From assembly GCF_965363235.1 (NCBI RefSeq), contig NC_134838.1, positions 11,440,441 to 11,504,440 of the forward strand: a stretch of DNA of 64,000 nt, written 5' to 3'. Positions within the stretch are counted from its first letter, which is position 1. Each line of letters begins with the position of its first letter. Below the pieces are notes generated by a model. It did not search any database. It was not told the origin of the DNA and saw only the letters and a list, made by a program, of their open reading frames with translations. Shown here one piece after another: positions 26,858 through 54,814 of this stretch. This DNA is from Mytilus galloprovincialis. Lineage: Eukaryota; Mollusca; Bivalvia; Mytilida; Mytilidae. The position numbers and the translations under genes were made by a program.

Positions 26858-28081
26858 TTAGTCGTTCATTTTATTAAGATAACAAGAAACGGTTGAGAGA
26901 AAACTTAAAATTAATTCGTCTTTCTTTTCAGACTTTTTAACAGTTCGTTTAGTTTTCTTTGGTATTCTAACTTTATCAACAGACATTTTTTGACTGCGGT
27001 CTGAATTATACCCATCAGAACTATTATTATCCGACATTTCGCTTGAACCGGAAGTGACGGAAGATTTATCTTTTTCGTTTTCACGTCGGTTTCTATTTGC
27101 TATTTTTTGTTTAAGTTCAGCGAGCGGAATATCATCCTCGTCGGAAGATGTTTCTCGTTCTTGTCGGTAACGATTTATGAGTCTTTCTCGAGGATTAGCG
27201 ACTGGAAGTTCATTATCACTTTCGTCACTATCTTCGGGAGGTACAACATAATTTGTTTTCCTTAATTGCCTACCTTCTAGATTGGTTGGAATAACCCATT
27301 CATCAATCTTAGCTTTTTTAAGGTGTTCTAAATGGACTTTCTTAGCGGCAGACCCATCTAATTGGTTTTTAAGGACAAAGGTTACCGGAGAAGTTTTTTC
27401 AATTATTCGGTAATAAGGTTTCCACTTAGTGTCTAATTTACTTTTTCTTAAATGATTTTTGAAATAAACCGGATCCCCAATTTCTAAATTAATTTCTTGT
27501 CTATTTTTATCTGCGTTTTGTTTTTGTTTTTCTTTAGACTTTTTCAAATTTCTGTGAACTAAAATGAACGATTTGTGCTGTTGTTCTAACAAAATCTTGT
27601 GCGAATCTTCACCTACATATTTCCTTCTAGGTTTCAATAGGTTATCAATTGGAAGAACAGGGTCTCTATTGTACAAAAGAAAAAATGGAGAAAATTTTGT
27701 TGATTCATTTTTTTGAAACCTAATAGCTGCTATTGTTTGATTTAGGCATACGTCCCAAGTAGACGCGTCACTTTGCAATTTCTTTGCCATGACGTCATGA
27801 AGCGTCCTGTGAAATCTTTCTACTTTCACGTTTCCCTGTGGATGATAAAAAGAAGTTGTTATGTGACTTATATTTAATTCTTTTAAAGTTTCTTCAAATA
27901 TTTTAGAGGTGAATTCACCACCATTGTCTGACACTATAACTAACGGCACAGAAAAGTTTGGGATTATTTCTTCAATTAATAAATGAACCACATTTTCCGA
28001 AGTTTTATTTGGAACAGGAAAAGCCAAAGGCCACCCACTGTAATGACAAACAAAGCTGACAATATACTTATTTCCTGACAA
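26858..28081 (-). pseudogene. Gypsy integrase part
   Basis: The conceptual translation shows the integrase catalytic core with VSDNGGEF and SFYHPQGN..VERFHR blocks, followed by a GDPVYFKNH-type region that resembles the GPY/F module. A long charged tail follows (repeated acidic serine runs such as EDSDESDNE and TSSDEDD, then lysine-rich KKTKRTVKKSEKK). No chromodomain is recognised. It is part of the broken gypsy fossil. Confidence 0.8.
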
Positions 28082-28712
28082 TGATGTAGGATAAGGTCCA
28101 GATAAATCTACCCCTATCTTAGCAAATGGAAATGGTGGTATATCAGATATTTGTAATAAAGGTTTTGTTTTACCTGCACTTTGAGATTGACAGATAACAC
28201 AGGAATTAATATAGGAATTAAGTTCCTTATATAACTTTGGCCAAAATTATTTTTGCCTAATTGAATCATGACATTTGTCGATTCCTAAATGACTTAGATT
28301 ATCATGATAACTTTTGATTACCTCATTTCGTAATTGTAATGGAACATAAAGCCTTAACTTTAAATCATCATCAGGGTGAGAAATGTAACAAAGTATATCA
28401 TTGGTAATAATATGTTGATTATCAACACTTCTTGAAGCCTTACCTGTGTTTATTTGATTAATAATTTCCGAAAGTTCTATGTCTAAAGATTGTTCAATTT
28501 TCATGTCATAACCAGGAATCGTACATTCCTTGACGCTAAGTTGGTCATCTTCTTTATAGTCACAACTTGCAAAATCTTTTGGATTGAACTCATTTGAATT
28601 CAAAGTATTGATTTGAAAAGCCTTGTCACTTATATCTACTTCAATTGTTTCATTTTGATTTTGATTGCCTTCTTGACCCGGAGGCCTTCTTGAAAGATAG
28701 TCAGCAATAGTA

Positions 28713-29831
28713 CAGTGGAACCTGTCCAAACCGAACACCCACGGGACTTTGCGTTTTGTTCGGTTTACACAGGTGTTCGGATTATAGAGGTAAACGGAAG
28801 TCGAAACCAAAATAATTTTGGCACTTACTGACAAGGGATTATAGGTGACAATTTATTTTTGTGTTGATTTAGATGTAAATGTAAAAAATATAAGTAGATG
28901 ATGATAAACGTTTTGCTTCATTTTTGTTAGTAAATGAAACGCCACTCCGTCAATCACGCTCGTCGTTGTGAGATGTCCGACATAAAAAGATTTTGCTTTT
29001 GATAATTATTTTCTCATCTATAATTCACTGTCTAATTCAGGTTCGCAGTCGCTGTCAAATGACGATTCCGTAGTTGAATGGTTAGTTGAATACCGGAACG
29101 TCATTGTATACACGAGTTCTCGGACTAAACTGGTCACCTGCTGATTGATACTTCGGCACACGATAAGAGTGAAACAAAAGCAGGGGTCCAGTTTATTCTC
29201 GGACTTTATCGTTGCTGAATAGCTAACGGAAGTCTTTGGGAGCATCCGTATCAAATATATAGGGCCTTTAACGGGAATCCAACAATCGAAAGCCATTGAC
29301 CTTGTTGTGTTGCATGACTTCTTAATCCAGTCAAAAGCTTTAAAACTATTATTTAATTAAACAGTTTAGCTACAAAATGGTCGTAATTATTTGAGTAACG
29401 TGCATTTAATTGATCTGAAAGTTCCTTCCTTGTCATTATCGGCCATGGGGGTAGCTGACCAGTTTAACGTTTCTTCACAAAAAAAAATTACTTTAGACAT
29501 GGACACAAACATGCTAATTAGTTTGTAATAACAACTCATCAGTTAATTAACCTCAAATACCCTCGGGGATTCTCTGTCTTCCTGTGTTTGTTTAATTAAA
29601 TCATGCAAATAATTAAAAATGCTTTTTTGTTTTGATTGCTATTGATAGATTTTGACAGACAAATTTACTAACTAGCCTTCAAAAAGCGTTCGGAATTCGG
29701 TGTTGACAGGGTTCGGTTTTGTCAGGTTCGATTAACTTAATTTAAAGGGAAATTTTTTCGGGACTTTAAAAATTGTTCGGTTTAAACTGAAATTCGGTTT
29801 TATCAGGGTTCGGTTTTCCCAGGTTTCACTG
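28713..29831. mobile_element. Non-autonomous pogo/Tc1-like DNA transposon inserted in the gypsy fossil
   Basis: TA target duplications lie at 28711-28712 and 29832-29833. The terminal inverted repeats are CAGTGGAACCTGTCCAAACC on the left and, in reverse complement on the right, CAGTGAAACCTGGGAAAACC. Length is 1119 bp. The motif TTCGGTTT(T/A) recurs several times near both ends (subterminal repeats), as expected of transposase-binding sites. An internal minus-strand open stretch of 92 codons (29018-29296) has no recognisable domain; no transposase remains. TIRs starting CAGTG with a TA target fit the pogo/Tigger branch of Tc1/mariner. Confidence 0.8.
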
Positions 29832-31716
29832 TATTATCAGTTCCCGCTAGCCATTCAATCTTGCAATTGTAACTTGCAATACCTAAAGCCCAAAGTTGTA
29901 ATTTTTTGTTACATTGTGGCGAAAGCAATAAGTACTTTAAAGGCTTGTGGTCAGTTCTGATAATAAATTCAGCTCCATGAAGATAATGATCTAATTTTTG
30001 TAAGGCATAATGAATGCTAAATGCTTCTTTTTCAATAGTAGACCACCTAGACTGTGTATCTGACAGTTTATGAGATAAGAAGTAAATGGGTTTTTCTTTT
30101 CTTAAACATGATAAATGAGTTTCTTCTTCCTCGCAAGGTTGCGTAAGACATGCACCTATGGTATCATTAGACGCGTCAGTATATAAAACATAAGGTTTCT
30201 TCAAGTCTGGGTATGCTAATAAAGGAGTCACAGTTAAACTATATTTCAAAAAATCAAAAGCTCTTTGACATTCCTCATCCCATTGAAATTTAGCATATTT
30301 TTTAGTTAAAGCAACTAAAGGTATAGAAATCTTTGAAAAATTCGGGATAAAGCGTCTATAGTATGAACACGCCCCTATAAAACTTCTTACTTCCTTAACA
30401 GTAACAGGGTTTGGTAATGTTTTTATTGCTTCAACTTTGGCATCGTCCGGTTTTACACCGTCGATATTGATTTTAAAACCTAAATAATTAGTTTCTTCCT
30501 GCAAAAATTGACATTTCTTTAATTTTAATTTCAAATTATGTTGTCTTAATCTGTCAAATACTTGTTGAATATGATTGAAATGTTCTTCCAAAGTTTCAGA
30601 AAATATCAAAATATCGTCTATATAGGAGATAGCAAAATTTAGATCTTGTAACACTATTTCCATTAGTTGACTAAATACAGCAGGACTATTTTGCAATCCA
30701 AATGGCATAACATTAAATTCGAAAAGTCCCTTATGACAAATAAATGCTGTTTTTGATTTATCTTCTTCCGCCATCTTAATTTGCCAGAATCCTGCCCTAA
30801 GGTCGATTAATGAATAAAAATTTGCAGCTCCTAAAAGTGTCAATATATCATCGATAACCGGAAGTGGATATCGGATTGCTAACGTAGACCTGAAATCTAT
30901 GCAAAAGCGTGTAGTTTTATCTTTTTTATCAACTAATACAACTGGTGAGGAATAATTACTATTAGATCTTCTTATAATGTTTGCTTCTGACATGTCAGTT
31001 ATTGCTTTATTGACTATTTCTCTTTTGTGTAATGGAGTTCGATAAGGTTTCAATTTAACCGGGGGATTACCCCCTGTATCGATTCTCATTTTCACAGTGT
31101 CAGTTTGACCTAATTCAGTATCCTTAAAAGCAAAAACATCTCTATTATTATTCAACAGTTGTAACACCCTACCCCTATGAACATCAGGAATATTAAGATC
31201 AGTTTCAAAAACATTCTCAATTTCAGAGTGCTCTTGAGTAGATTCAAGTGAGACAACATTTTCTTCTAAAACTGGTGAAGCCCTTCCTATTGCTATGCCC
31301 CTTCTAAACTTATAAGTTCTATTCGTAGTATTAACTATAAGTACTGGCATTTGACGCTTTTCATTAATGTTTGCAACTGAATTAGCAACCATTAAACCTG
31401 GTTGATAACTCAAATGCCCCTTGGTAATTGGTGAAATTTCAAAAGATTTAGAACTTGAGAATGTATAATTTTTATTACCCTTTACATAACAAATATTACT
31501 AGTCAGAGGTTTGAAGACAGTGGTTTGAGCAAGTCTAACAATTGAAGCTATATGAATATCTTCTACTAATGGTACATAAGTTTTATTTATCCTTAAACAT
31601 CCCAAATCAAAATAAACTCTAACACCAAATTTGACTAACCAGTCACGACCCAAAATTGCATTTCTGTTCATGTCAGATACTACATAAAAAGTATGATTCA
31701 TTTTGTTTCCTTTCAT
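29803..31716 (-). pseudogene. Gypsy protease/reverse transcriptase/RNase H part
   Basis: Visible blocks, in order: ILGRDWL (protease end), the RT blocks RFCIDFR, YPLPVIDDIL, FYSLIDLRAGFWQI, NVMPFGLQNSPAVFSQLM and the catalytic YIDDILIFS, then the RNase H blocks YVLYTDASNDTIGACL, EKEAFSIHYALQKLDHYL and IIRTDHKPLKYLL. This is textbook Ty3/gypsy order. It abuts the pogo-like insertion at its C-terminal side. Confidence 0.9.
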
Positions 31717-31855
31717 GTTAAAGTCTAAATTTATACTTCCTAAAACATTTAAAGAAGCCCCGTTAACTCCTTGTAAATTGACTTTCTTTTTTTTCTAATT
31801 TTGGTAATCCCTTAATTGAATTGTAAATCTTATTATGTAATAAAGATACTGAAGC

Positions 31856-33623
31856 TCATCTGTCAATTAAACTTCTAACTTTCATATGTGCAATTTTAAT
31901 CAAACAAGAATTTGGATTTCCCGCTAAATTAATTTCAAATGTTTCTACTTGTTCAGATTCATTTTCAATTTTGTTTTCTGGTGCATTTTCAAATGATTTT
32001 TGTTCTTGATAAGTTTCAAAATTTCTATTTTGTATATTTGAATTTCGCGCTCTAACCTTTTTATTTCCGTTGAATTTTGAATTTCGCGCCATATTTCCTT
32101 TGTTTACTTCCGGTTTTGAAAAATTCCGCGCCATTTTTTCTTTATTTGCTTCCGGTTTTGATTTGATCTTTCGCGCCATTTCTTCTTTATTTGTTTCTGG
32201 TTTTGATTTGAAATTTCGCGCCATTTTTTCTTTGTTTACTTCCGGTTTTGAATAACGATTGTTGAATCTTTTATAATAATTTTTATTCTCGTGATAGGTA
32301 GAATTGTTAGAACATGCATTGTTAAAGTCTGTTGATTTGTTATTTATTTTTTTTAACCATGATTCATATATATTATATACAGGTTTTGTATATCTATAAT
32401 TAATTTTTCTCTCAAACCTCTTATTTCCCTTAATTCCCTTAAAAGTCTCCCTATTGGCTTCAGCATAAAGAGACCGTCTTAGTTTAAATTTTCCCTTGGT
32501 TTCCTAAATTGTTCATTTGATCTTGCCCTACAAATTCTTTCATAATGACCTGGTTTACCACAGTTCCAACAGAAGAATGTTCTTCTTTGTTGTCCTGTCG
32601 AGTCAGACTTGTTTTGTACAGAATTAAACCTTCTAGGATATGTATTTGCATTATTACCTATCGTGTTGTCATTAAAATTGTTTTGTACAGAATTAAATCT
32701 TCTAGGATATGTATTTGCATTATTACCTATCGTATTGTCATTAAAATTGCCTCGGGGTACATGTATTTCGGCACGCGAGCTTACTGCGTTGACATGAAAT
32801 TTTTTATCTCTGCAATATTTTGCCTTATGGCCAAATCTGTTACAATTGCTACATTTCACACCTATTTCTCGGTAATGCGATATATACATTGGTGTTATAT
32901 TACGCTCATTACCGTTATTTTTTTTTTAAGTCTTTTCGTCTAAATTGTGTTTCAGCCATTGCCGAGTTTACTGCTTGAGCCAAAGTTTGTGGATTTTCAC
33001 GCATTATTTTCATTCTCAAATAATCCTGATACAACCCATTTATGAAAAAGTTAACTAATTGAAGTTGAACTATTGGTTGATTGATATCTTGCCCTCTAAA
33101 AGCATCTGTTGCTAACGTTAAAATTCGTTCTCCAAATATGGGAACATTTTCGCCAATTTTTTGATTAACCTTGTTCAAAAGTTCAAATGCATATGATGCA
33201 TCAGGAATATGCCCATAACGAAAATTCAATTGAGTATTTAGATTATCCCAATTATTATTCACCTGATCAGTTTCTCTTAACCACCTAGCAATGAAATCGC
33301 TTACTGGACCTACAGATGTTCGATAACATATCATTTTACAATCATTCGGAACTTAATTTGTTATCATTGCATATTTTTCTATAGATCGAATCCATTGAGA
33401 ATATTTTTTCTGAATTTGAACCGTCAAAGCCTTCAACTATCGAATTGACACCGTTTGCAGTTAATTTTTGAGTAAGACCTTGAACTTGTGTTGCTAAATT
33501 TTGAAAAACTAACCCTACATTAAATTCTTGTTCAGCCATTTTTTTTTTGGAGAATATAATAATTAAGATTATCAAATAAAATATCACACGTACCTTAGTA
33601 TTTTTCAGAATTCGTCCTGTCAC
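31856..33623 (-). pseudogene. Gypsy gag, nucleocapsid and repeat-rich linker
   Basis: 33342-33623 and 32915-33334 resemble the retrotransposon gag domain (FIARWLRETDQVNNNWDNL, ELLNKVNQKIGENVPIFGER). 32479-32889 has two zinc knuckles (CSNCNRFGHKAKYC and CWNCGKPGHYERIC) separated by two tandem copies of a unit containing NDNTIGNNANTYPRRFNSVQ. 31856-32224 contains four degenerate copies of a KPE.NKE.MARN unit. It is part of the broken fossil. Confidence 0.75.
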
Positions 33624-34120
33624 GGTACACCAAGAAGAGTTTATAACAATATATAGTTTTGCTATAAGTTTATTAACCTACCTGAGCCGAAGTAATTCAT
33701 ACAATAAAATACACAAGTATATATACAGAATATAACGGTGTCAAGGTTTCTATTAATTTGACCATTATAGTCCTAAATCAAAAGATACAGGGATGAATAT
33801 CTATTAAGTTGTCTCTAATTGACATGTTTTGACATGCTTTGACCAACCTGGAGATTGATGGTCAAAGAATGCACGTATATCCATTGTTTTAACTAATTGC
33901 TACATGTCACCACCTGGTCTGAATGTAAACATGTTATATATATATATGCAACCTAGAGGTCAATTGAACAACCTTTTACAAGGTCATGTTTTTCTTAATA
34001 GATATTCCCCTGTATTTTATTCAATTTAATAAACATTATTGAGAATATATAATCCTAAATATAAATATAAATATATATAATATATATTTATATATATATT
34101 TAAGCCATCATATTGTCACA

Positions 34121-35862: not shown

Positions 35863-36121
35863 TTAAAGCAATATAAGCCGTCAAAATCGCGATTTTTTAA
35901 AATGCTATGAAAGAGATGAAATTAGAAATGATTAATGAATTAAAAGGTTTACATAAAATTTCACGTCCTAAAAACCCGTAATGTAACTGTTAAAGTTGAA
36001 AATATATTCCTCATCATTCCGTTTGACCAGTGCAAATGGCAGCTTATTAATTTCCGACACTAATTCCGAAGATTGCCGATGCTGATAAGAATGCGTGTGC
36101 TGCTGACCTGGGTCAACAAAA

Positions 36122-38617
36122 ATGGACGAAGAGGTAAGATGTTGCATGTTAAATCTTCGTAGTTATTCATTAGTGTTGCATTGCAGACGATTGTGTTTAT
36201 ATTTTTGAGTAAAGATAACATTGATTTATTCTTATATTTCAATTATAACTAATTTCTGGTCTCACTTGCAAAGAAAATCACCGAAAATTGATAGAATATC
36301 CATTTGGGGGTCCAAGAGGGGAATCGCCGAAAGTGTGTGTGTTTTGTTTACAAAATTATTCAAGTAAAGTTTTTTGGTACACCATTAAACTATAATATAC
36401 AGGCATTTGTTTCACAAACAAACGAGGTTTATCGGTGAATGAATAAGAAATAGAACCGACAATATTTGCTGGGATATCAAAAGTTGGTATATATCTTCGC
36501 ATGAATACATCGGAAGAGTACGTAACGATGTATTTGATGCAAAGGAAGAAATAAACAAATATACGTTTTTCAATAAAACAAGGACACATATATTTTCTTT
36601 CAGTACGTATTCACAACTTTTGTGCATTATATATTTGGCCTTTAGACAACACCAATGTCCTCTATCAAAAGATCGATGTGGGGAAAAAACATCGTAGGGG
36701 TAATGGGAACCTCAAGATTTATTTTCAATCATTGATTTCTCTGTTGTAAAAAAGAACTCAGCTTTTCAATTCTAGATGCACGATATTTTTTATTAGTTAT
36801 TGACGTTGAGCTAATTATAATTCTGTATATCATAAAACATTTTCTTTATGATTTTGTACAAAAATCAGGCAGTTAGACTTTTATTGCATTTGTCATTACA
36901 AGGTTTTTATAGCCAACTATGTGGTATAGATTTTACACATTGTTGAAGGCCATACGGTGACCTACATGTATGGTTGGAAATTTCTGCATGTGTTCACAAG
37001 TCTCTTGTGGAGACATGTCTCGCAAGGTTTTTACACTTTATATAGTGCTGTAGTTTATTAATAGTCTTGTGATAACAAAATATGTGTCAATCATAGAAAA
37101 TTATATTTTTGAGAAATTTCTTACCGACTACTTTTCTTTCCTCAGATTTCAGATACTAGAAGCAGGTCTACCACACCTGAAGTTCATTCTTCGGATGGAG
37201 AAAGGCCCATTCGTGGGAGGGGTAATAGGAGACGGACAGCGCGGGGAAGAAATAGGGCGAGAGGTGGCAGAGGCAGAGGCAGAAGAGGCCATAATAGAGC
37301 CTTACAAGGACAGCCAGAACCACTCAACAGGGCTGAAGTCGCCGCACAGGCCAGAGCTGAAAGAGATCGCCAGATGCAGGTAAACTATCCAACATTTACA
37401 TATCAAAAAACTTTAACTGTTTCATTTTTTTCTTCATTCAATAAAACATTTTACTGAAAGTGCTGTGTGATTTGCCTTGAAATGTAAAAGTACTTTATTT
37501 TTCAGGAACGAATTGATGGCCTATCTGAAGATCAAATGAAATTTGCAATAATGGCCACGTACAGGGAACAACCTAGTTTTCTGTTCAGAGTACTGGAAGC
37601 AGTAAACCAAGAGTTTACCGCAAGTGAAACTACACCAGAGCCAGATCCAGAACCTACACCAACACCTTCAGTAGGTATTCCAACTTGGTGTCGGTGCAGC
37701 AATTGCAGAGAAATGCCTAGTGAGGTTGAAAAAAGATGTTGCAACCAGATACCTCAAAACTGCCACTCTACACTACATGTAAGTACTATTCTCTGTTAAC
37801 TCATCTTATATTATTCTTTATATTTTGACGTTTAACAAGAAACTTACTTGGATTCTCATTCTATTCAGTTGATTATTTATATGCCAGCGTCCTCCAATAT
37901 TAAAAAGATGTGGTTTAATTGCAAATGAGACAACTATCCACAAAAGAACAAAATGACACAGACATTAACAACTTAAGGTCATCGTACGGCCTTCCACAAT
38001 GAGCAAAGCCCTTACCGCATAGTAGCATGTTTTCGTAATCTAGTGATTTTTCTAAACAATGAGAACAGTAAACAAATGTACATAAAAAGTTAAAAAGATT
38101 TGGTTGCTTTAATTCATTTTGCCCAAAACAAAGAAAATCACCTTCGATACATAAACAAATGATCATGGTTGTTACATTAAATGCTATGGTTCAATGCTAA
38201 CTTCAAACTATAATTTCAGACATTGCAAGTTTTAAAATCTTAAACCTAAAAAGTATACACAACATTGACAACTCTCCGCACCAAAGAGCTGTATTGAAAA
38301 AAAATATGGTCTGTATACAATTTCAACTTATTCATTTATTATTTCAATTTCAGGATTTTCACAATGTTGTATTGGACCCCTTGGTTCTTGAGGTTGCAAT
38401 GAGGTATAGAAATGATATGATTGCGCAGCCTCCATACCAGGATTACAATAGATCACATAGACACACAGCATACCGCCAATATGTTCTGTGGATCCATGGA
38501 TATCTTGGAGCTGGAAACAGACAAGTAATTCCGAGTTGCTGTGTTTGGGCTATCAGGAACAGATTTCCAGACCCATCTGGCCAGTATGTTGGATTTATTG
38601 GAGGACGTTTTGGTTGA
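36122..38617 (+). CDS. P2X7-type C-terminal (ballast) domain protein, 4 exons, 260 aa
   Basis: Exons: 36122-36133 (ATG GAC GAA GAG, donor |GTAAGA), 37146-37379, 37506-37778 and 38354-38617 (TGA). All junctions are phase 0 with good acceptors (CTTTCCTCAG, TTTTTCAG, AATTTCAG). Residues about 24-58 are an RG/RR-rich disordered tract ([17 protein letters not shown]...), likely nucleic-acid binding or nuclear-targeting. Residues 123-137 are a Pro/Glu linker. Residues 143-260 match the cysteine-rich domain known from the cytoplasmic tail of vertebrate P2X7: WCRCSNC (143-149), CC (160-161), C168, then [10 protein letters not shown] (213-222), [19 protein letters not shown] (227-245) and YVGF (251-254). 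In P2X7 this domain binds zinc and guanine nucleotide. There are no transmembrane segments, so this is not a channel. Tail-to-tail arrangement inside shared TIRs suggests an accessory transposon protein. A domesticated host gene is the alternative. Confidence 0.8.
36895..37020 (+). repeat. Interspersed repeat fragment in intron 1 of the P2X7-C-type gene
   Basis: Contains ACACATTGTTGAAGGCCATA and TTCACAAGTCTCTTGTGGAG, the same family as about 350-487. A reversed copy lies in intron 3 at about 37905-38035 (AGATGTGGTTTAATTGCAAA, ATCGTACGGCCTTCCACAAT). Confidence 0.6.
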
Positions 38618-38622
38618 GAGAG

Positions 38623-38646
38623 AATAAATTTTATTTCAGTTTTATT
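38623..38646. terminator. Interleaved polyadenylation signals of two convergent genes
   Basis: Plus-strand AATAAA at 38623-38628 serves the P2X7-C-type gene, 6 bp past its stop. Minus-strand AATAAA at 38641-38646 and 38630-38635 serve the transposase, about 18-34 bp past its stop at 38664. Cleavage normally falls 10-30 nt downstream, so each 3' end should run into the other gene's 3' end, giving short antisense overlap. Confidence 0.7.
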
Positions 38647-38663
38647 TGTATTTTTATTATTAG

Positions 38664-41600
38664 TTAGTTAGTTGGCCACTCATAGTCTATTGTCTGGTCA
38701 AAATCGTAGTCTATGGTCCTGTCCAGATCTTCCCTGTTAAATCTTGAAATTTTGGCAGCCATCAAATCTTGAGTAGGGGGAGGTGGACCAGGGGCAATGG
38801 TTGCTGACAATCTTCTTGGGTCAAATGGATCTAAAATCACTCTCCTGCTCATCCCGATATCATCAGACAACCTCTTCATTATAATATGCTTCATTAATTC
38901 TGGAATGTAAATATATTGTTTTGGTGTCTTCACTTCAGTAGCAGTCCATCTACCCCCTTTCTTACTGTAGTACCTCTGAAGTCTGAAATTGAAAAAGATA
39001 TCATGTCATAAAAAACCATCAGATTTAGGGTAATTGTCCAATAGACAACAACATATCAACTTAAACACAAACACTTTTAACATTGTCTTCATTTTTAAAT
39101 AATTATATCAGAATATTTATAAATTAGATGTGGTATGATGGTCAATTAGATAACTTCAAACCAAAATGTTGTTAATGTAAGAAATGTTACAGTTCCGCCT
39201 TCAATGCTATATAAGCGCACACTACTAAGTAAGCCATAAATGCAGGTCTTTAGACACACATAATGGCTAGTGTCAAATACTTAAACAAACAAAACAATTG
39301 CACAACTCATATACAAAACAATGAATCACAATTATATCCACTTAATTACTTCATCCTTACTTGAAACATGTCAGCAGCTATATACTAACCTTTTAGTCCC
39401 ATCCTTGTTTGTAACAACTTTTCTTTCACAGTGAGCATTGTGGTCAATAGCTGCTAGCTGATTCCTGGCATTGGATGTTGATGGACCATAAGAATGGCGT
39501 TTAGAAGCATATTTCAGAATCACATTTTGAAAATTTTCTAACTCAGCTGTACTCCTATCATAACAAAAATAGTAACTATTAGATCATTGAAGGAAGTGCA
39601 CCAATCTTAGCCATAATATTCAAAATCATTTTTAGCGCAATAACTGATGGAGATTTTAAATACTTTTAAATTAAATGTATATATATTTTCAAAATCAAAT
39701 TAAAAATATGAACATAAATAAGGCCATGATTTTTCACAATTGAACTGATTCTTACAGATCAATAATCATGTCAGGGTCTTTCATAACGGACTATAATGTA
39801 CAAGTATTTCTTATTGTTAACGGCTATATGGTTGCCTTTAGGTGCTTACATTCACTTCATTTAGGCTTTGGTGGATAGTTGTCTCATTGGTGATCATATC
39901 AAATCTCCTTACTTTTATATACAAGGCAAAACATTTAATAAATGACCAATAAAGGCAGAGTAGCCTAGTTTCTCTAATCACAAATCATTATTGTTCTATT
40001 ATTAAATTACCTGCAATTTAGATAGTATGGTATTTTTCTTAGAAAGCGTTTGTCCATCACTATCTTTATCAACGCATCATGAGGAGGAGTTGCACCTGTC
40101 AACCATCCCTTTTCACGTTCAGATGACAGCGGTCCATGTTTACATTCATTTCCTGCTGTGTCACTATATGCTATCATCCATTGATGCTTATTTACAGTAT
40201 GGTGCATGATCCCAAACCATGATCCCTTTAAGAAAAACAAGAAAAAAATAATAATATATTATATTATTATATTATACAATGTGATATTTTTTGTATTGGC
40301 ATAAGATTAAGTATCAACAATGAATTTGACTGAGCTTTAAAAAAGGTTCTGAATGGCTTTTATAAAAAACTTACAATAAATTCTTGTTCAGTAGTAGATA
40401 TATCTGCACAATGCCAAAAGTGGTTCACTATGTCACGAGACCATTCCAGTACAGGTTTGTTTGCCTTCTGTTCTTGAGCTACCTGTAATTGAAAAAAAAA
40501 TCTTCTGTAAAAGTAGGTGTTTATGCCAAGGCCATTTAAAAATCTGACGGCACTTTTCAATGTACACTTTAGAGGGATAAAATTGAGAATGGATGCTTAT
40601 TTAGCGTTTTAATTTTTCCCCAGAATATGCATGAAATATCTGCCACCGGACATAAACAACATAACTCAAGCATTTTTTTCTATTTATCCTTCAAGTGTCA
40701 TAAGAATAAATTTTACTTTTTTTCAAAACTTTCACACTACAAAAATAAATGAGTAGAGATTGTCTTTGGTAAATCAACCTTACCTTCACTACTTTCTTCC
40801 CAAGGTTCTTCGCCCCGTGCCAAATATCAAATGAGTGCTTGATATTACTAAATTCTTTTTCTGAAATAGATATAAACAATAATGGTAATCTCCAATGAGA
40901 AACTTAGCATACAAATAAATAAGAAACAGTGTTCCAATATCTTCCAAATTAACCTCACCACATTATGTATGTACTTGTTCCAAGTCAAGAGTCTGTAATT
41001 CAGTGGTTGTCATATGTTAATGTGTTACATATTTGTTTTTCATTTATTTTTTTATATAAATAAGGCAGTTAGTTTTTTCGTTTGAAATGTTTTACATTGT
41101 CATTTCAGGGCCTTTTAAAGCTTACTATACTGTATGAACTTTGCTCATTGTTGAAAGCCTGTGGTTACCTTTAGTTGTAAATTTCTGTGTAATTTTTGGT
41201 ATCTTGTGGAGAGTTGTCTCATTGGCAATCATACCACATCTTCTTTTTTATAATTATTTCTTTGTTCAAAGACAATTCTTGAAAAAGAATTTTACTTATA
41301 TTTTTGCTGAATGTATCAAATGGTAAAGGTTACATAAATAAAATACTTAGTCTAATGTGTCCTACAAAATTCTATATGGAATAATCATACAGTATCTATT
41401 TTGTGGCAACATAAACATAAATACTTACTCATTAGAGATTCCACCTGTATATGGGCATCAGTGACAACCTCTACCACTTTCATATTTTTGTCCAGTAGTT
41501 GTCTTAAGCCTTTCAGAAAGCAGGCTTTCTCAAGATTTGTACTCTTCTTCTCTGTCATCCTTTTATCCATGGTAACTATAGTTAAGATCTTTTTTGTATT

Positions 41601-44600
41601 GTATTCCATGAATGTATATGAACAGAACTGTGCACAGTGACCAGGACTATCCATTCTTCCATCACCTACATGTAACCAAACAAAACATTTTATTCTGGAC
41701 ACTTAATGTTGGTACATGGAAAAGCTTTCTTTTATTGGTACATTGTAGTTTTTATAACAATTGTAATATTATGAATGTGCAAGTGAGCTATTACATGTAT
41801 ATGTATCATAAAAAGTACCCTTAAACGGAGCATAGCATTGAAAAATTTTACCTAAAGTAAATAGTTGAGTTGCCCTTCACTATTATAAATTTGGTCTTTG
41901 GTCGAGAGTTGCATCACTAGCTATCATTCCACATTTTCTTTTTACATATATTTTTTTTTTATAAATATTCCATTTCAAACACAAATTAAATCTTTAAGAC
42001 TTAGCTAGTTATTCCCTGATAGGCGCTCTCTTGATCTATTTCACACTGAAAATGTGTTTGAAAAAAATACTAAAGCAAACAACTCACCTAATATAACTAT
42101 TTCTTTATCACGGAACTCTTGCAACACCATATCCTGGGATTGTACCCAAAAGCTATCAATTGATGGTACAAGGTACGTCCTTTGTATTTTTAAGAATGTT
42201 GAGTTGCATAGAATTGGTAATCTAATAAACTTTGCCAAGTCTGCAATTTTTTGATAATTGTTCCCAGACAGTAAAATACCAGCAGAAAAAACCAAGTCAC
42301 CACTGTGCAGTCTTCGATTCAAGATGGGCTGAGAACACCACTTGTGGGCAAGATGTTTATTTTGACAAACCTGAAAAAGTAATTTTTTTTCAATTAAAAA
42401 AAATGTCAATCAAAAATATATATTTGCAAGTTTGTGTTACATAAATTTACATGTATAAAATTAGTGCAGCTGCTTTTTCTTATAAAATTTTTCCTTGATA
42501 ATAATATCACATCTCATGAATTTTATAATAAACTAACCCATTTCAAGTATAAAGCTGAAGAAATCAACTCCATCTTAATTGTTAAAGGCAACCTGCATCC
42601 TTTTACTGCACATATAGGTGGAATATGTGTTTTAGCCAAACTTAAGATGGAGCTCATATAAACAATAAGTGGTCTGTCATCTAAAAAGGTATCTACTTCA
42701 GTCTCGCTCCTAATCTTTTTTATACTTGGGCCTAGGTCTTCTTCCTGTTGATCAGAAGGGTCTGCTGACTCGTCTTCAAATCCTTCATTTTCTGACTCTG
42801 ATTCAACACCATGGTCTTGTCTGTAATAAAATGTACCAAATATATTATAATCTATACTAGAAATTTCAAATCTTGTTAGACTTTCTTAACCAAAAAATAT
42901 AATTTCATTTGAGACAGACTAACATCAACTAATAGACACAAGAATCAGTAAACACAAAAATCCCTTATTTTCAAGTATTGTATGCAGGACATCACACTTC
43001 ATCTACAAGAAAATATTTCTTGAATCTTCATTTAGTGAACCATAAAAACTTGGGTCAAAACTCTTATTTTAGCTTATAATTTAAAAAAAATAAATCATAT
43101 CATAGGGTAAAATGTGAACTAAATTTTAAAAGTTTTTAGACTTCAAGTTAATAAAAAAAACTTACTTGACCAAAAATTTAACAAGACGGACAAGTGAACA
43201 GAGAGATACACAGACTGAACATATAGTAAATTGGTAAAAAATTGAAAACAACATGTTTTATAATTTCATACGTCCGAAGCGCTTTTCAGGATTTACCTTT
43301 ACCTTAGTAAGTCAGGCATTAAAAAATAATCTGTAAATACCAACAGTATATGCACACCGGTGTACATGTTATTAAGAAACTATAATGAAAATCAGAATTA
43401 CCTGTAAGTAGCATCAAAACTTGGTTCATAGTCTTCATCAGAAAAATTATCATCATCATCCTCATAGTTACCCTCAGAAATAGTAATGGTTAGACTGAAG
43501 AAAAGAAAAAAATATTCTGTTGCTGTTAATTCGTACTAAAATGTAACCGATATGAATTTTATATTTAAATTTGAACTTGATATAAATATTTAGGACAAGA
43601 AATTAGTTACTAGTATATAAAGCAATAGTCATGTGATTCAATACCAATTTGCCCTTTTTTCTATCACTATCATCTATACTCCCTTTTATACTCACAAGTA
43701 TTTCCTTTAACAAATAATGTTAACATTTTTAACTTCTGTAGTCAATATCTCAAATCAAAATGAGAAGTGCTTGTTTTAAGTTGTTTCATTGTTAATTAAG
43801 TTTACAACTTCAATTTAATACATGTATAGCATGTGTAGACATAGTTTATGCTTACTCAAATGGATTTACAAAGCTGCTTTGTGCACTCTTCCACAGAGAG
43901 TCTGTTTTCCTACTGATTTCCTCTATTCCAGACATCTGGGTCTCTTCCCTAAAATACAATTATTTAAATAATTATTCTGGGGGAAAATGCTGTATTATGG
44001 CTGACATTCAGATATGAAATACTAAAGTCACTGTTACATAGAAACTTGTATATATGTATATAACTCTAAACAGAACATTTTAATCTGAATTAATGGTGTA
44101 ACAGAACATTATTGACGTACAAATTACAATTAATTGTCTTGTCCCTCTTGCAAAATGTTAATCAAATACTTGGTATAATGTATGTTAGTGCTTACACATA
44201 TCTCGATTCATGTTCTCTTTCTGATGATGATATTTCCGACACATCAGATAAATGTACTGAATGCTGTTGCAATTTAGATTGCAATGGTCCAGGGGTAGAA
44301 GTTGTTAAAAGTGTATTGGCAGAAGATGTCTCTTCTGACATTGCACTACATGTAGGGGCAGGGCTGGTTGGCTTTTCAACGGCAGTGTTGACATCATTAA
44401 TATTTGTCACAGGGTTGGTTGGTTTTTCACTAATAGTGTTGGCATCAATAGTATTAGGGTTTCCTTGGTCAGTCTGAGTATGGAATTCATACCTGTATAA
44501 AAAAGGACATGCATTTGATAATTTAAGTAAATAAATATTCTTTTTTTCCTTTTTTTTTATAGAAATTTTTGAATTTATAAGTTGAAGAATATTTAAAAAC

Positions 44601-45870
44601 AGAAAGACAGTTCCAATAATTGTCTAAAAAATTACATATAATTTGTAAAGAAGTTATAAAAGATGTCAAACAGTGATATAACAAATTATCCCTCCGTGGG
44701 GCCCCTTAAGGTTCCACTAAAGTCAAAATATAGGACACTGCAGAAATATCTAAACTTTGCCTGTATTTTTCTACCTATAATGAATAAAGTCCTAAACTAT
44801 GAGAACAAATGTTCATTTAAACATACTTAACATATACACACTGTCAAAATAGTAAATAAACTTGAATTTTTAATGTTGTGGCCAAACCGGTTTTGAGGGT
44901 GAACACTAAATTTTACAAAAAATCTGGAGGCCTGCGAGATGATTTAATTTGTATAAAATTGGTATAGGCGAATACTATTACATGCATTGCAGTACAAGCT
45001 AGTGTTTATTTGTCAAATAAATTAGTTGCAATGACATTTTTGTCCAATTTCTGTATTGTATCTTTGATATTCGTTCATTTAGATACATGAATTTAGCTGA
45101 AACTCGTAAATCAATACATTTTCTTAAAAAATCAACATTAGCTTGTACTGCATTGTATGTTACAGTATTCATTCATACCAATTTTTAACGAATTTAGACA
45201 TCTCTCAAGCCTCCAGATTTTTTGGAAAATTAAGTGTTCACTCTCAAAACCGGTTTGGCCACAACATAAAAAATTCAAGTTTATTTACAATTTTGACAGT
45301 GTGTATATGTTAAGTATGTTTACATGAACATATGTTCACATAGTTTAGAACTTTATTCATTATAGGTTGAATATTACAGGAAAAGTTTAGATGTTTATGA
45401 AGTGTCCTATATTTTGACTTTAGTGGAACCTTAAATTTTGCCTTGCGTTTCAGTTAATAACTTGCCAAACAACGAGAAAGTTACGGGTTTCTCTAGGATT
45501 AAATGATTGCTTCTGTTCCCTGATTTATTTTTTTATTCATTATTAATCACAAAATTACGATTAAGATGCTAATAACAATGAAATGTAAATTATAAACAAA
45601 ACCACGGGAAACTTACCTATCCAGCAAAATCTTCGCCACTTCAGCGTGTGATTGCAAACGAAGAGCACATTTTAGCTCACTCCAGCGATCATACTGGGAA
45701 CCAAGATATATTCTATTCTTGTTACATTTTGCATTTACTGCTGTACGTCGTCGTTTTTTAGCGGAATCAGTCAATGTTGGCTTTCTCCCTCGCTTCAAAA
45801 CATTGATGTCAGACATTCCACGTGCGCCGGAGATATTACGCACGCGCAATGGATTAAAGAAAGAGGTCAT
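38664..45870 (-). CDS. Kolobok-like DDE transposase, 12 exons, 807 aa
   Basis: Exons (minus strand): 45617-45870, 44196-44492, 43856-43948, 43402-43494, 42538-42820, 42088-42370, 41429-41665, 40784-40860, 40375-40482, 40011-40225, 39390-39554, 38664-38982. They sum to 2424 nt with consistent phases and GT/AG sites throughout. An in-frame TAG directly precedes the ATG at 45870. The N-terminus has an AT-hook-like RGRKPTL and basic run (KKRRR), then YDRWSELKCAL..AEVAKILLDR; an acidic linker follows. Residues about 300-355 hold a probable zinc site (IC....C, then VCQNKHLAHKWCSQP). The catalytic region shows DGRMDSPGH (436-444), VVTDAH (D504), FDIWH (524-528) and ELENF (651-655) followed by LKYASKRHSYGP and ARNQLAAIDHN. 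The two D motifs and the E of ELENF are inferred catalytic residues. Homologues are common, mostly unnamed, in fish, cnidarians and molluscs. Superfamily assignment rests on the TTAA target and these motifs; it could be a related unnamed group. Confidence 0.8.
39120..42000. repeat. Interspersed-repeat fragments in transposase introns
   Basis: Copies of the same mussel repeat lie between exons: about 39125-39235 (reversed, decayed), 39830-39905, 41040-41250 (TTGTGGAGAGTTGTCTCATT, CAATCATACCACATCTTC) and 41865-41945. None touches an exon or splice site. Confidence 0.6.
44710..45430. mobile_element. Long-TIR MITE with TTAA flanks, nested in transposase intron 1
   Basis: TTAA at 44706-44709 and 45431-45434 bounds a 721-bp near-palindrome. 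The left arm starts GGTTCCACTAAAGTCAAAAT and the right arm ends with its reverse complement. Pairing continues over roughly 250 bp per arm, including TTGTGGCCAAACCGGTTTTG / CAAAACCGGTTTGGCCACAA and CTGGAGGC / GCCTCCAG. The central third is less well paired. There is no ORF. The TIR differs from that of the host transposon, so this is a separate TTAA family. It lies wholly inside an intron and leaves the splice sites intact. Confidence 0.85.
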
Positions 45871-46090
45871 CTAAGAGGTCACTGCATATTGACCGTTTTC
45901 AATGAAAATTATATCTGTCGGGAAGACAAACGACTCAAGTCGAACATTTTTGCTTAAAACTTCAAAAACAAGATATTTTAGATCGTTTAACGAGTAAAAT
46001 TACGTTTTTAAATACACATCTAATAAGATTCTTGTTTAAAATTCATGAACAAAAAAAACCAAGATTTTAAAGCTTATATTGCTTTAAAAC

Positions 46091-47803: not shown

Positions 47804-47807
47804 TTAA

Positions 47808-48242
47808 GGGAAAACGGTAGTATTTAATTTTCCCAGCATTAGGTTGGCCTTTTGTGTACCCAAGGCAGGTGAAGGAAGTCAAATTAGGAGCGCTGTGATT
47901 GGATGTAAGGGTACAATATATTTTTTATTTATCTATGAATAACTGCAGTGTGTATATTTGCAATATAAATTTTGAAACCTATTGAAATATTTTCTAGAGA
48001 ATTATTCGAAAAGACTTGCAAAATTTCATAAATTTGGTGCAAAATGATGGTATGCATGGATAAAATAAACAAACTCCGTTGGGAGTTGGTCATGATACTA
48101 TTTGGCTTTAATTTTCAAAACACAATAATAAAGTACTAACACAACATATAACTGTTTTATCCCGGTTTTTATCTTAAAAAGTGGTAAATTTAGAAAATGT
48201 TAATATTGTCGCCTATGGCAGAATAAATAGTACCGTTTTCCC
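47808..48242. mobile_element. 435-bp MITE with TTAA flanks
   Basis: TTAA at 47804-47807 and 48243-48246. The left end GGGAAAACGGTAGTATTTA matches the reverse-complemented right end GGGAAAACGGTACTATTTA with one mismatch in 19. No coding capacity. Confidence 0.8.
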
Positions 48243-48246
48243 TTAA

Positions 48247-49439: not shown

Positions 49440-52400
49440 TTAATCTTTTCCAGCGCGGATTTAATATCCAATTTAGAAGTTCTAATGTAACGTTTAAAAC
49501 AATCTGATTTCCAACGTCCCAGTGTTTGTATCATGCTGTCCTCAATACCTTGAGAACTAGCACTTGTGGCCGCACCTGATCAAAAAGAATGTCCGCTATA
49601 ATCCTTGTCACTATATCCTAATGCTATGAGTATTGTTTTCAGCTTGCTTATAAAATAGTTCCAGGAAAGTGGTTTTCCGGTTTCTTCAACGAAAAACGAA
49701 TCATTGTGCTTTGCGTTTAGGTTTAGTCTTACACTCATCAGCTGGGATAGCAATTTATACGGACAAACGACGCCCTCTATCTTGAACAAGGACATTATAA
49801 TACCTTGTCGCAATATATCTGTCTTTCTGGCTTTTAAATTAACAGTTACTTCGCATTCTGAAACTACTATTTCCTGTAAAATTTTAAACGTTATTGGTAA
49901 CTTTTGTCGTAATGGCTTACTCTCAGATTTTTTAATTCCATTTAACACATTTTGCAAGCGTTGGTATGTATGACCAAATTTATCGCAAAGGGGATTCACA
50001 TTTTCAAAATTAACTCCATGAAAACGAACTCCAGCGAGATATAATTTGATTGTTGAATATTTCAGTTTTAACACTGATTGGCAATGTGCCACGAAATAGA
50101 TCAATAAATCTTCCGAAAGTTTAGACATATTGAAGCTCCTTGAGTTGAATCCAGTGATATGATCGCCACAAAATTGAATAAAACATTTATATCCTGTGGA
50201 ATAAACATTGCGGGTATTCACATTGATACTTTTATTCCATAAGCTGTCGACTGCTTGATCTAACTCCACAGAATTTCGAAATGAGGAGGGCAGGTACATG
50301 GATTTGGCGAAGCGTCCGGAGCTAATTGTCGAAACCGCTTCATCTGGTAACGAGAAAGAGCATCTGCTATATTATTTTCTTTCCTTGGTACATTTACAGC
50401 ATGTACAACAAAATTAAATTTAGCCGCACACCAATTTAAACGGCGTACAAGATTCATAATTACGTTACACTTTGAACGATCCTTATTAATAATGTACACA
50501 TTAGACATATTATCACAATGAAAAAGAATGCGTTTAGTAGACCATTCATGCCCCCATAAAATAGCAGATATAACAATCGGATACAATTCTAAGTAAGCCA
50601 TTGAGAAAGACTTCTCATCGGGCCGAATAAAATCGTCGGGCCAAATGCCTTGAAACCACCTTTTCCTAAAATAACCTCCGTATCCAATTGTTGATGAAGC
50701 ATCCGTAAATAAATGAAAATCGGACGCATTAATAACGTTATCGCTGATAAAAAAAAATGATATACCATTCCACTGACTTAGGAATTTGAACCACATTGCC
50801 ATGTCATCTCTACATCCCTTTGTAATTGTAACGTGATGATAAAGTTCTTTAACGGAGTGTGCTAATGTCAATAAATTGAGATGACCCAATAAACTTCACA
50901 TTTCACGCTTAGTACATGAACGTCTATTTAGATAGCTGTATAAAATATCCTTAATTCGAACAAGCTTCTCATCAGGTAATTTAGCAATCATATGCATTGA
51001 ATCGAGAATTATGCCGAGATATTCTAATGAAGTAGATGGACCAACTGTTTTATGAGCGCTGAGAGGAATCTTTAAACTATTAAATACATATAACATTGTG
51101 TTCATATTCCTTGTAGCATCTACGTAAGGATTGTTAATCAGGAGAAAATCGTCTAACAAATGTAACACGTGCCGCAAACTGTAATTATTTTGTAAGATCC
51201 AACCAATTGCAACTGATAATGTATCGAATATCTTGGGACTTGAACGGCAACCAAATGCTAAACGAGTATAAAAATAGTACATGTCATTCCATTTTAATCC
51301 ATAAAATCGCCATAAAGAATTATGTACGGGTATTAATTTGAATGCACCGGTTACGTCACACTTACATAATTGACTTTTAATTCCTAATGACTTAATTATA
51401 TTTATAGCGTCGTCAATTCTTACATATGTTAATGAATAGTCTTCCTTATTTATTAAATCATTGATGCTGTGATGCTCATCATTGTTGGGAGGAGCCGAAA
51501 GGTCTAGAATTAATTGTTTCTTTTTTTAATATTTTCCTTCAACAATACCTATCGGACTGATTCTATAAGTATCAAACGGAGGTTTTGTAAATGGTCCAAT
51601 AATGTATCCTTTACGAAGTTCGTCATCTACCAGTTTCGTAACATCATCGGGAAATTTCTTGGTAGACAATAAATTCTTACATTCCAAAGATTTACTTGGT
51701 AGTACGTTTATGCCTGTGTCAAAACCATATCGAAGTCCATTAATTAAATTAAAAACAAAAATTTTATCTGGATAATGAGTAAATTCAACTTCAAGTTGAT
51801 CGATATCAATAGGCGTAGACACTAGTCAATTCTTAGCCTGTGCTTGTTCTTGTGACGGCCTACTGTTCGGAGTAGAACCACTAGATGATCTAGTATTGAC
51901 ATGGGCGAATGAACATTTTGTCCCCTTGAAACATTTTCCTGATAAGAAATTGTTACACACTTCTCGACCACGAAAGAAAAGAACAGGGCGTCCTCGTACA
52001 TCTGTATTGGAATCATCACGATCGTTACTCCCAACTTGTACTTTCTTAAAATGAGTTTGATTATAAGTTGGTTTGGATCGATTATTCGATTGACCAAAGC
52101 TTAGTAACGTTTGACAAACAGCTGTGAGATGTCCAAGACTACCGCATGTTTAACATTCCTTAATAATTTGTTCTTTTGTGATGGATGAATAGAGTTTTTC
52201 GTCTCTGATGGACCAATCGACAACTTTACCGTGGGTCAGTTTGATAGCAGCTACCTTATTTGCGAAAGCCTTGTGATACTCGTAGAAAACGGGACCTTTA
52301 TATCTTGCAGAGATATCAATGACATCTTGAATATACATATCGAATTCGATGCGTCGGTCTTGCTTTTCACAAATAATATTTTTGTAAATATTAAAAGCTT

Positions 52401-53004
52401 CTAGAAATTCTTGAATAGACAAGTTTCTTTGAAGGCGCGATGTTTGATTAACAGAACGGAGCCGTCAGATTCATCAACGGTTTTATAATCTTGTACGTTT
52501 TCTTGATTGTTAAGTAGAGTAGCCAGATTAATGTATTTGCCTTCTAAAATCTGCTTCCGAACGTTTGGTGCCACTGCTTGAACATGCGGAAACATGCCTG
52601 AGGAAACCTTGGCAGTGTGATAAGATCCTGTATCATGATGTACTCCATTATCTATATCACTAACGACTGCAGGTTGACTAATGATATTTGATTCTCGAAC
52701 TAAAAGCGACTGAATTAAAGTTCCTTGATTTTGAAAAGTTTGCTCCATGTTGTTTAAGCTGGTGGTAAGTTGAGTTAATGCTGGAATTTCGGGCATAACT
52801 GTATTATCCTGTCCTGAATTCTCACTTAATAGTTCCAATAACTGCTCTTTGGTAAAAGTTGATGGAGCCCTGATGCCTTGCTTCCTTAGTTTTTTTTTTA
52901 ACTTCGTCAAATGTCAATTCTGTATTACTGGAATTCTGTACAACTGGTGTGTCACTTTTCATACTTTTCTTACTGGAAACACGCTTTTTTCGAACTGGCG
53001 GCAT
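49440..53004 (-). mobile_element. DIRS-type tyrosine-recombinase retrotransposon fossil, broken
   Basis: Parts along the minus strand: a gag-like region with a basic start (about 52150-53004); an RT region (about 50896-51822) with RLAFGCRSSPKIFDTL and the catalytic LLDDFLLI; an RNase-H-like region (about 50260-50889) with FHLFTDASSTIGYGGYF and NIADALSR; and a tyrosine recombinase region (about 49440-50299) with NTRNVYSTGYKCFIQFC, YSGHSF and, near the end, GRWKSDCFKRYIR. This gag, RT-RH, YR order is diagnostic of DIRS-like elements. The copy is broken at a handful of places. Terminal repeats were not resolved. Confidence 0.8.
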
Positions 53005-53766: not shown

Positions 53767-53954
53767 CACACGACCACCGAAAGCTTTATTATTGTGAAAC
53801 CCAGGTGGTTGTGTGGTCTAGCGGGACGGCTACAGTGCAGGCGATTTGGTTTCACGATATCTCAGTAGCATGGGTTCGAATCCCGGCGAGGGAAGAACAA
53901 ACTGCGAAAGCAAATTTACAGATCTAACATTGTTGGGTTGATGTTTAGACGAGT

Positions 53955-53990
<36 letters not shown>
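53532..53990 (+). repeat. Two tandem copies of a tRNA-derived SINE unit (229 bp) with (TA)n
   Basis: Copy 1 is 53532-53760 and copy 2 starts at 53761; by eye they are identical outside the TA run. Each has a tRNA-like pol III promoter: A box TGGTCTAGCGGG (53585-53596; second at 53814) and B box GGTTCGAATCC (53644-53654; second at 53873-53883). The unit continues GAAGAACAAACTGCGAAAGC and GTTGGGTTGATGTTTAGACG, then runs into a TA repeat. A further copy of the 3' part, without the TA expansion, lies at 57226-57345 and shows what follows in the family. The tRNA cloverleaf itself is degenerate. Confidence 0.8.
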
Positions 53991-54003
<13 letters not shown>

Positions 54004-54005
<2 letters not shown>

Positions 54006-54814
54006 GGATTTGTTCATCGGAATCAAAATTTAACCATCGTTTGGGGCAACTCAGACAGCAACTTAAATCAAGAGGTTATAAGAACAAAAATATTTCAGAA
54101 GCTTTCGGTAAAGAAAAAGACCGAACAAACCTACTTGAATACAAAGAAAAGACCGCCCAGACAAATAAAATCCCGTTTGTTGTTAGCTTTCATCCTGACC
54201 TGACAAATCTTTCATCAATTGTCCACAAACACTGGCGTCTTATTGAAAATGATCCTTCCTTAAAAGAGATTTTTCCATCACCTCCCGTTATGGCTTACCG
54301 CAGACCCAAAAACCTCAAAGATATTCTAGTAACATCCAAAGTATCTAAACAGGAGATATCAACAATCGGAGGTTATACACCATGCGGAAGGGGCAATTGT
54401 AAGTGCTGCAGAGTCGCTACTATCGAAACCCAATTCGTCAGCACAGTCACAAAGAAAAAATACAACATATTCATAACATCAAATTGCAAAACGCAAAATT
54501 GCATTTATGTTCTGACGTGTGGAACTTGCAAAATACAATATGTGGGTGAAACAGAAACACCATTTAACATCCGACTAAATAACCATCGGTCATTTTATAC
54601 AAAAGAAAGGAACTGCCCAATTACAAGACACCTTTTAAGAGCAGGACATGATTTTGAAAACGTCACATTTCAAATCATTGAGAAAAATCAAAATTGGGAT
54701 ACACAAGGAAGACAAAAAAGAGAGAGATTTTATATGCACCAGTTACGAACTCTTGAAACTGATGGACTCAATGAGAGAGACGAAAAAAGATTTAAAAACA
54801 AATCAAAACCATAA
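54004..54814 (+). CDS. Penelope-like retroelement, C-terminal part with GIY-YIG endonuclease
   Basis: About 268 codons are open from just after the TA tract to TAA at 54812-54814. The apparent start inside the TA repeat (MYIYIYIY...) is fortuitous. Domains: a post-RT linker (FNHRLGQLRQQLKSRGYKNK, FVVSFHPDLTNLSSIV), a cysteine motif typical of Penelope elements (PCGRGNCKCC), then GIY-YIG signatures CIYVLTCGTCKIQYVGET, a downstream R..NH and ITRHLL..GH. This endonuclease nicks the target for element integration. The reverse transcriptase is missing, so the copy is 5'-truncated at the SINE/TA junction. What remains is in frame, so truncation is fairly recent. Confidence 0.85.

What the first reader, a model, noticed from the sequence alone, without database searches (positions are those of the whole stretch)
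35867..46083. An apparently intact 10.2-kb, two-gene DNA transposon with TTAA target sites
Seen: TTAA at both ends, matching 12-bp-plus inverted ends with a second conserved block, and two convergent spliced genes whose every exon keeps frame. Known: TTAA duplication is shared by Kolobok and piggyBac elements; the transposase is not piggyBac-like. Inferred: a complete, possibly still mobile element of Kolobok type or an unnamed relative, carrying an accessory gene. Autonomous DNA transposons of this size with 16 exons in total are unusual.
Basis: partly seen in the sequence, partly recalled or inferred. Interest (0 to 1): 0.92.

Follow-up and report, generated by a model that had tools for sequence, protein, structure and literature searches.

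The report
Two-gene Kolobok transposon carrying KolX
This looks like a complete cut-and-paste jumping gene of the known Kolobok group, carrying a second gene of the kind from which part of the vertebrate P2X7 immune receptor is thought to have come; it is a well-preserved new example, not a new kind of element.

Summary
TTAA flanks both ends (35863-35866, 46084-46087), with a perfect 12-bp terminal inverted repeat (AG...CT) and an imperfect continuation to about 36 bp. Two convergent genes (12 and 4 exons; 807 and 260 aa) have every exon open and in frame. It is the best-scoring TTAA-anchored inverted pair in the window; 1 of 200 shuffles reached its score.

The accessory gene decides the identity: Pfam P2RX7_C 2e-31, solved P2X7 chains 1.4e-19, eight ballast cysteines aligned. 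Kojima and Bao (PMC9587614) described this protein, KolX, in the Kol0 lineage of Kolobok and proposed it as the source of the P2X7 ballast. The larger protein has the motif order expected of a Kolobok transposase (D, D, DIWH, H2CH, E), although no family profile names it.

So it is a Kolobok transposon with KolX, a new member of a known kind. Ten Xenopus Kolobok copies are 6.8-13.9 kb, so its size is ordinary. Unusual: no THAP domain found, and a 721-bp TTAA-flanked MITE in transposase intron 1. Copy number, activity and exact lineage could not be tested: no host genome or animal relatives were available.

The parts
35863..35866 (.). left TTAA target site duplication
46084..46087 (.). right TTAA target site duplication
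35867..35878 (+). left terminal inverted repeat, perfect 12 bp (imperfect continuation to about 35898)
46072..46083 (-). right terminal inverted repeat, perfect 12 bp (imperfect continuation to about 46053)
36122..36133 (+). KolX exon 1 (start codon)
37146..37379 (+). KolX exon 2 (Arg/Gly-rich region)
37506..37778 (+). KolX exon 3 (first six ballast cysteines)
38354..38617 (+). KolX exon 4 to stop TGA (RHxxYR and PSCC part of the ballast)
45617..45870 (-). transposase exon 1 (start codon)
44196..44492 (-). transposase exon 2
43856..43948 (-). transposase exon 3
43402..43494 (-). transposase exon 4
42538..42820 (-). transposase exon 5
42088..42370 (-). transposase exon 6
41429..41665 (-). transposase exon 7 (first D in DGRMDSPG, second D in TDAH)
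40784..40860 (-). transposase exon 8 (DIWH, the C/DxxH motif)
40375..40482 (-). transposase exon 9
40011..40225 (-). transposase exon 10 (H2CH pattern)
39390..39554 (-). transposase exon 11 (candidate last E)
38664..38982 (-). transposase exon 12 to stop TAA
44706..45434 (.). nested palindromic MITE with its own TTAA duplications (721 bp without them), in transposase intron 1; not part of the original element

Best explanation
The stretch 35867-46083 is an apparently full-length, autonomous-looking DNA transposon of the Kolobok superfamily, of the kind that carries KolX (published as the Kol0 lineage). Shown: TTAA at both ends, AG..CT inverted ends, two complete convergent gene models, a KolX/P2X7-ballast protein, and a large protein with D, D, C/DxxH, H2CH and E in the expected order. 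Inferred: the 807-aa protein binds the inverted ends, cuts the element out at TTAA and inserts it into another TTAA by DDE chemistry. Inferred and less certain (about 0.4): KolX, with an Arg/Gly-rich basic N-terminus and the cysteines of a two-zinc ballast fold, is a partner that helps the transposase bind DNA or assemble on the ends, which would fit a transposase in which no THAP DNA-binding domain was found.
For: TTAA and TIR. Gene models. KolX: Pfam P2RX7_C 2e-31, 109.8 bits against a cut-off of 23.5; four distinct P2X7 sequences of the PDB at 1.4e-19 to 5.7e-18; eight ballast cysteines aligned. Transposase motifs D436, D504, DIWH at 525, H2CH from 583, E651 or E653. Literature: KolX of Kol0 = ballast fold, TTAA and RR/YY ends, C/DxxH, zinc finger between second D and E (PMC9587614, parts 1-5 of 6 read); H2CH, AG ends and TTAA in Xenopus Kolobok (PMC6004289, passages); among molluscs Kolobok almost exclusively in bivalves (PMC10294476, passages).
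Against: No library names the large protein: Pfam gives MULE at E 0.15, below its cut-off, over residues 485-532, and a chance-like NAMPT_N at 0.23; the three PDB matches at E up to 10 are not transposases. No THAP domain, though Xenopus Kolobok transposases usually have one. PMC7016195 reports an 'ancestral synteny' of such ballast genes with two markers from sponge to mollusc and sea urchin, which taken at face value favours host genes. No second copy or empty site could be examined. The model of exon 7 was poor (pLDDT 53.5) and is not used. Gene models have no RNA support.
Confidence: 0.9

Rival explanations
1. A domesticated host locus: a transposase gene and a KolX-like gene kept by the host at a fixed place, with remnants of the ends still visible.
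For: Domesticated Kolobok transposases are known in Xenopus (PMC6004289); a ballast-gene linkage from sponge to mollusc and sea urchin was reported (PMC7016195); every exon is open.
Against: Both ends are intact with TTAA and a perfect 12-bp repeat, which a long-domesticated gene has no need to keep; the surroundings are rich in other mobile elements; the reported linkage may itself be the transposon's gene pair (inference).
Confidence: 0.07
2. A piggyBac element, which also duplicates TTAA.
For: TTAA at both ends; [quoted passage not shown]
Against: No piggyBac domain in the large protein; DIWH and H2CH motifs; ends AG..CT obey the Kolobok RR..YY rule, unlike piggyBac; those piggyBac proteins lack most of the seven cysteines, which are present here.
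Confidence: 0.01
3. Not one element: the two TTAA ends are a chance pair and the genes belong to one or two other units with different borders.
For: The exact 16-base pair occurs by chance in 5 of 100 shuffles; 1 of 200 reaches its extended score.
Against: The pair encloses exactly the two genes that published Kol0 elements carry, with the start codons 255 bp and 213 bp from the left and right ends, and its terminal bases fit the Kolobok rule.
Confidence: 0.02

Closest known systems
Kolobok, Kol0 lineage (Kolobok-1_XT type; Kojima and Bao 2022, PMC9587614)
   Same: TTAA target site, RR..YY ends, DDE transposase with C/DxxH and zinc finger, second protein KolX with the ballast fold
   Different: THAP domain not found here; the N-terminal 435 residues have no family match; lineage placement by tree not done
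Full-length XKol elements of Xenopus (PMC6004289)
   Same: AG termini, TTAA, 6.8-13.9 kb sizes, DDE and H2CH (HHCH) motifs
   Different: the Xenopus transposases carry THAP (C2CH, PWF, AVPTIF) and are listed there by longest ORF; here 12 exons and no THAP
P2X7 ballast domain and nanor/ZCD proteins (PMC7016195)
   Same: eight cysteines, RHxxYR and PSCC motifs; R546, H547 and R578 equivalents
   Different: here a free-standing protein encoded inside a transposon, with an Arg/Gly-rich N-terminus; R574, K583 and C552 equivalents are V, D and Q
KolobokP (PMC9587614)
   Same: Kolobok with two genes, transposase and accessory gene on opposite strands; reported as especially rich in bivalves
   Different: no long terminal direct repeats and no His-Me finger nuclease match here

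Membership tests
Kolobok superfamily | TTAA target site duplication | tested here: met
Kolobok superfamily | termini 5'-RR and YY-3' | tested here: met
   AG..CT; rule from PMC9587614
Kolobok superfamily | DDE triad with C/DxxH after the second D | tested here: met
   D436, D504, DIWH at 525, E651 or E653; assigned by eye and string search, no profile of the superfamily was at hand
Kolobok superfamily | zinc finger (H2CH) between C/DxxH and the last E | tested here: met
   pattern from residue 583; zinc binding not tested
Kolobok superfamily | significant similarity or tree placement with known Kolobok transposases | not testable with these tools
Kol0 lineage | second gene encodes KolX with the ballast fold | tested here: met
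   by sequence; definition
Kol0 lineage | THAP domain in the transposase (usual in Kolobok per PMC6004289; whether it defines Kol0 is not stated in what I read) | tested here: not met
   no Pfam THAP match up to E 1, no C2CH pattern in the protein or in six frames of the element (a motif split by an intron would be missed there)
KolobokP | long terminal direct repeats of about 450 or 660 bp | tested here: not met
   no such repeat in the repeat finder (largest direct family 58 nt, interior; 20 of 54 families shown, largest first) or in BLAST of the element against the window
piggyBac | piggyBac transposase domain | tested here: not met
   no such Pfam match up to E 1
Active (mobile) transposon | further copies with the same ends, empty sites | not testable with these tools
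   no genome held

The most novel reading that the evidence does not exclude
A KolX-bearing Kolobok subgroup whose transposase has no THAP domain, so that KolX (Arg/Gly-rich N-terminus plus zinc ballast) serves as its DNA-binding or assembly partner. By extension, the 'ancestral synteny' of ballast genes reported from sponges to molluscs and sea urchin in PMC7016195 would be the transposon's own gene pair and not host linkage.
Probability: 0.3. Interest if true: 0.5.

Novelty: new member of a known kind. Interest (0 to 1): 0.42.

Why it matters
P2X7 carries a ballast domain whose role is still unknown (abstract of PMC9859053 as listed), and the published view is that it came from KolX of a Kolobok transposon (PMC9587614). 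An apparently intact copy with both genes is a natural test object for what KolX does in transposition, and so for what the ballast did before it joined a receptor. It also appears to add a THAP-less case to the Kolobok record. It does not add a new kind of element.

Tried and rejected
Relatives. Transposase and KolX against viral contigs: 3 and 4 pattern matches, no relative in either. A 350-aa part of the transposase against genome contigs: 9 pattern matches, no relative. Its 239-aa core against phages: 1 record of 50,697, E 0.1, 25% identity, not followed. The 16-base end in viral contigs: 42 stretches, one match each; among the 43 loci held (these 42 plus L043), none has the 12-base end in both orientations and neither protein has a relative (best E 2.5 and 7.3). 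I take these as chance.

Host. A dispersed repeat from the introns gave 0 matches in viral contigs and 1 locus in genome contigs, a contig filed as a Saprospiraceae MAG (L043), which names no animal. No tRNA and no Rfam family was found.

Structure. Exon 7 alone (78 aa, no alignment) folded at pLDDT 53.5; discarded, no fold search made. NCBIfam gave only chance-level matches for the 239-aa core and none for KolX. The 12-mer at 14447-14458 was considered as a second end and rejected. Paper searches that gave nothing more on KolX: 'KolX' found 1 paper; 'P2RX7_C' found 6, by title all on P2X7 physiology or other biomedical topics (listing only); Kolobok lineage names found 4, of which one is unrelated chemistry (listing). 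The 7 papers with Kolobok and Mytilus (listing) were not opened except PMC9587614 and PMC10294476.

Full report
Observation. TTAA lies at 35863-35866 and 46084-46087, directly outside AGCAATATAAGC and its reverse complement. Including TTAA, 16 bases are identical. The exact 16-base match is not overwhelming by itself: 5 of 100 dinucleotide shuffles of the window contain at least one such pair 1-20 kb apart. When TTAA-anchored pairs are extended and scored, this pair is first of 66 seeded pairs (score 23, next 16), and 1 of 200 shuffles reaches that score. The 12-mer also occurs at 14447-14458 without TTAA.

Genes. On the minus strand 12 exons from 45870 to 38664 give 807 aa; on the plus strand 4 exons from 36122 to 38617 give 260 aa. 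All 14 introns are GT-AG and no stop interrupts either frame (the end of KolX exon 3 was one base short and was corrected). The two stop codons are 46 bp apart, so the 3' ends probably overlap; this is inference from the sequence. There is no RNA evidence.

Accessory protein. Pfam P2RX7_C matches residues 118-254 at 2e-31, and phmmer finds four distinct P2X7 sequences at 1.4e-19 to 5.7e-18; two further matches at E 0.38 and 0.77 are unrelated. In the best alignment eight of the nine P2X7 cysteines in the aligned stretch are cysteine here (477, 479, 482, 498, 499, 506, 572, 573; C552, outside the cysteine clusters, is Q), and R546, H547 and R578 of the guanine-nucleotide site are kept, while R574 and K583 are V and D (numbering of the chain, roles from PMC7016195). 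PMC7016195 says that H547 was not found in invertebrates; it is present here if the host is one. Residues 20-62 are rich in Arg and Gly.

Large protein. No library names it: Pfam gives MULE at E 0.15, below cut-off, over residues 485-532, and NAMPT_N at 0.23; the three PDB matches at E up to 10 are not transposases; NCBIfam gave only chance-level matches to the 239-aa core. The motifs fit Kolobok: D436 in DGRMDSPG and D504 in TDAH with 67 residues between them, DIWH at 525, an H2CH pattern from 583, E651 or E653. [quoted passage not shown] PMC6004289 gives DDE, THAP and H2CH as the usual three motifs and AG ends with TTAA for Xenopus copies (passages). THAP was not found.

Identity. PMC9587614 (parts 1-5 of 6 read) states that Kol0 elements encode a transposase and KolX, that KolX resembles residues 476-595 of human P2X7, and that P2X7 arose by fusion with KolX. 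The combination found here - TTAA, AG..CT, a C/DxxH and H2CH transposase, and KolX - is that known kind. A full-text search for 'KolX' finds this one paper. It names vertebrates, annelids, cnidarians and sponges for Kol0; PMC7016195 (abstract, sections 9, 11, 14 and passages seen) found ballast proteins in oyster and limpet. KolX in a mollusc would thus be no surprise; as a transposon gene in molluscs I did not see it stated in the parts read. Among molluscs Kolobok is said to be almost exclusive to bivalves (PMC10294476, passages).

Size and age. Ten full-length Xenopus copies run from 6,763 to 13,907 bp. Here 721 bp are a nested palindromic MITE with its own TTAA and GG..CC ends in transposase intron 1 (44706-45434), and copies of dispersed repeats, some matching other places in the window, lie in transposase introns 6, 7 and 10 and KolX introns 1 and 3. 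Element and window have the same G+C (32.4% and 32.1%).

How it works. Shown: the anatomy. From knowledge of the superfamily: DDE transposition into TTAA. Inferred: KolX as a DNA-binding or assembly partner, by analogy with two-gene elements such as Harbinger (recalled, not from a call). The strongest rival is a domesticated host pair; the linkage claim of PMC7016195 speaks for it at face value, but intact ends and TTAA speak against it, and that linkage may be the transposon itself; its marker genes are not named in the text I saw, so this is not tested.

Limits. No host genome is held; searches of viral contigs, phages and prokaryote genomes found no relative, as expected for an animal element. 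Copy number, activity, age, selection, host and lineage are therefore open.

Noticed in passing
44706-45434: Long palindromic MITE (317-nt arms, 88% complementary) flanked by TTAA, ends GG..CC (the Kolobok RR..YY rule), nested in intron 1 of the transposase; its ends differ from those of the element around it.
   Followed up: partly
47804-48246: A second short TTAA-bounded inverted pair, TTAAGGGAAAACGG, 443 bp apart, also GG..CC ended; possibly another TTAA MITE, 1.7 kb from the element.
   Followed up: partly
26861-33677: LTR-type retroelement on the minus strand: integrase (rve 8.9e-13), reverse transcriptase 5e-33 and RNase H 8.7e-31; CCHC knuckles seen by eye in ORFs; spread over several ORFs.
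   Followed up: partly
49583-52913: Minus-strand ORFs with a reverse transcriptase match (8e-09) and a neighbour that looks by eye like a tyrosine recombinase (no Pfam match at 0.001); perhaps a DIRS-like element.
   Followed up: no
53942-54811: ORF with a GIY-YIG domain (8.3e-06), as in Penelope-like elements (recalled), beside a 229-bp tandem repeat with TA runs.
   Followed up: no
60738-62596: Minus-strand ORFs with zf-RVT (1.7e-11), probably the 3' part of a LINE.
   Followed up: no
813-1337 and 19744-20295 (minus strand): Two similar ORFs of 175 and 184 aa without a Pfam match at 0.001, perhaps a duplicated host gene.
   Followed up: no
L043:37-221: A dispersed repeat of the window (80% over 198 aligned positions) near the start of a contig filed as a Saprospiraceae MAG: possibly animal DNA in a bacterial bin.
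   Followed up: partly
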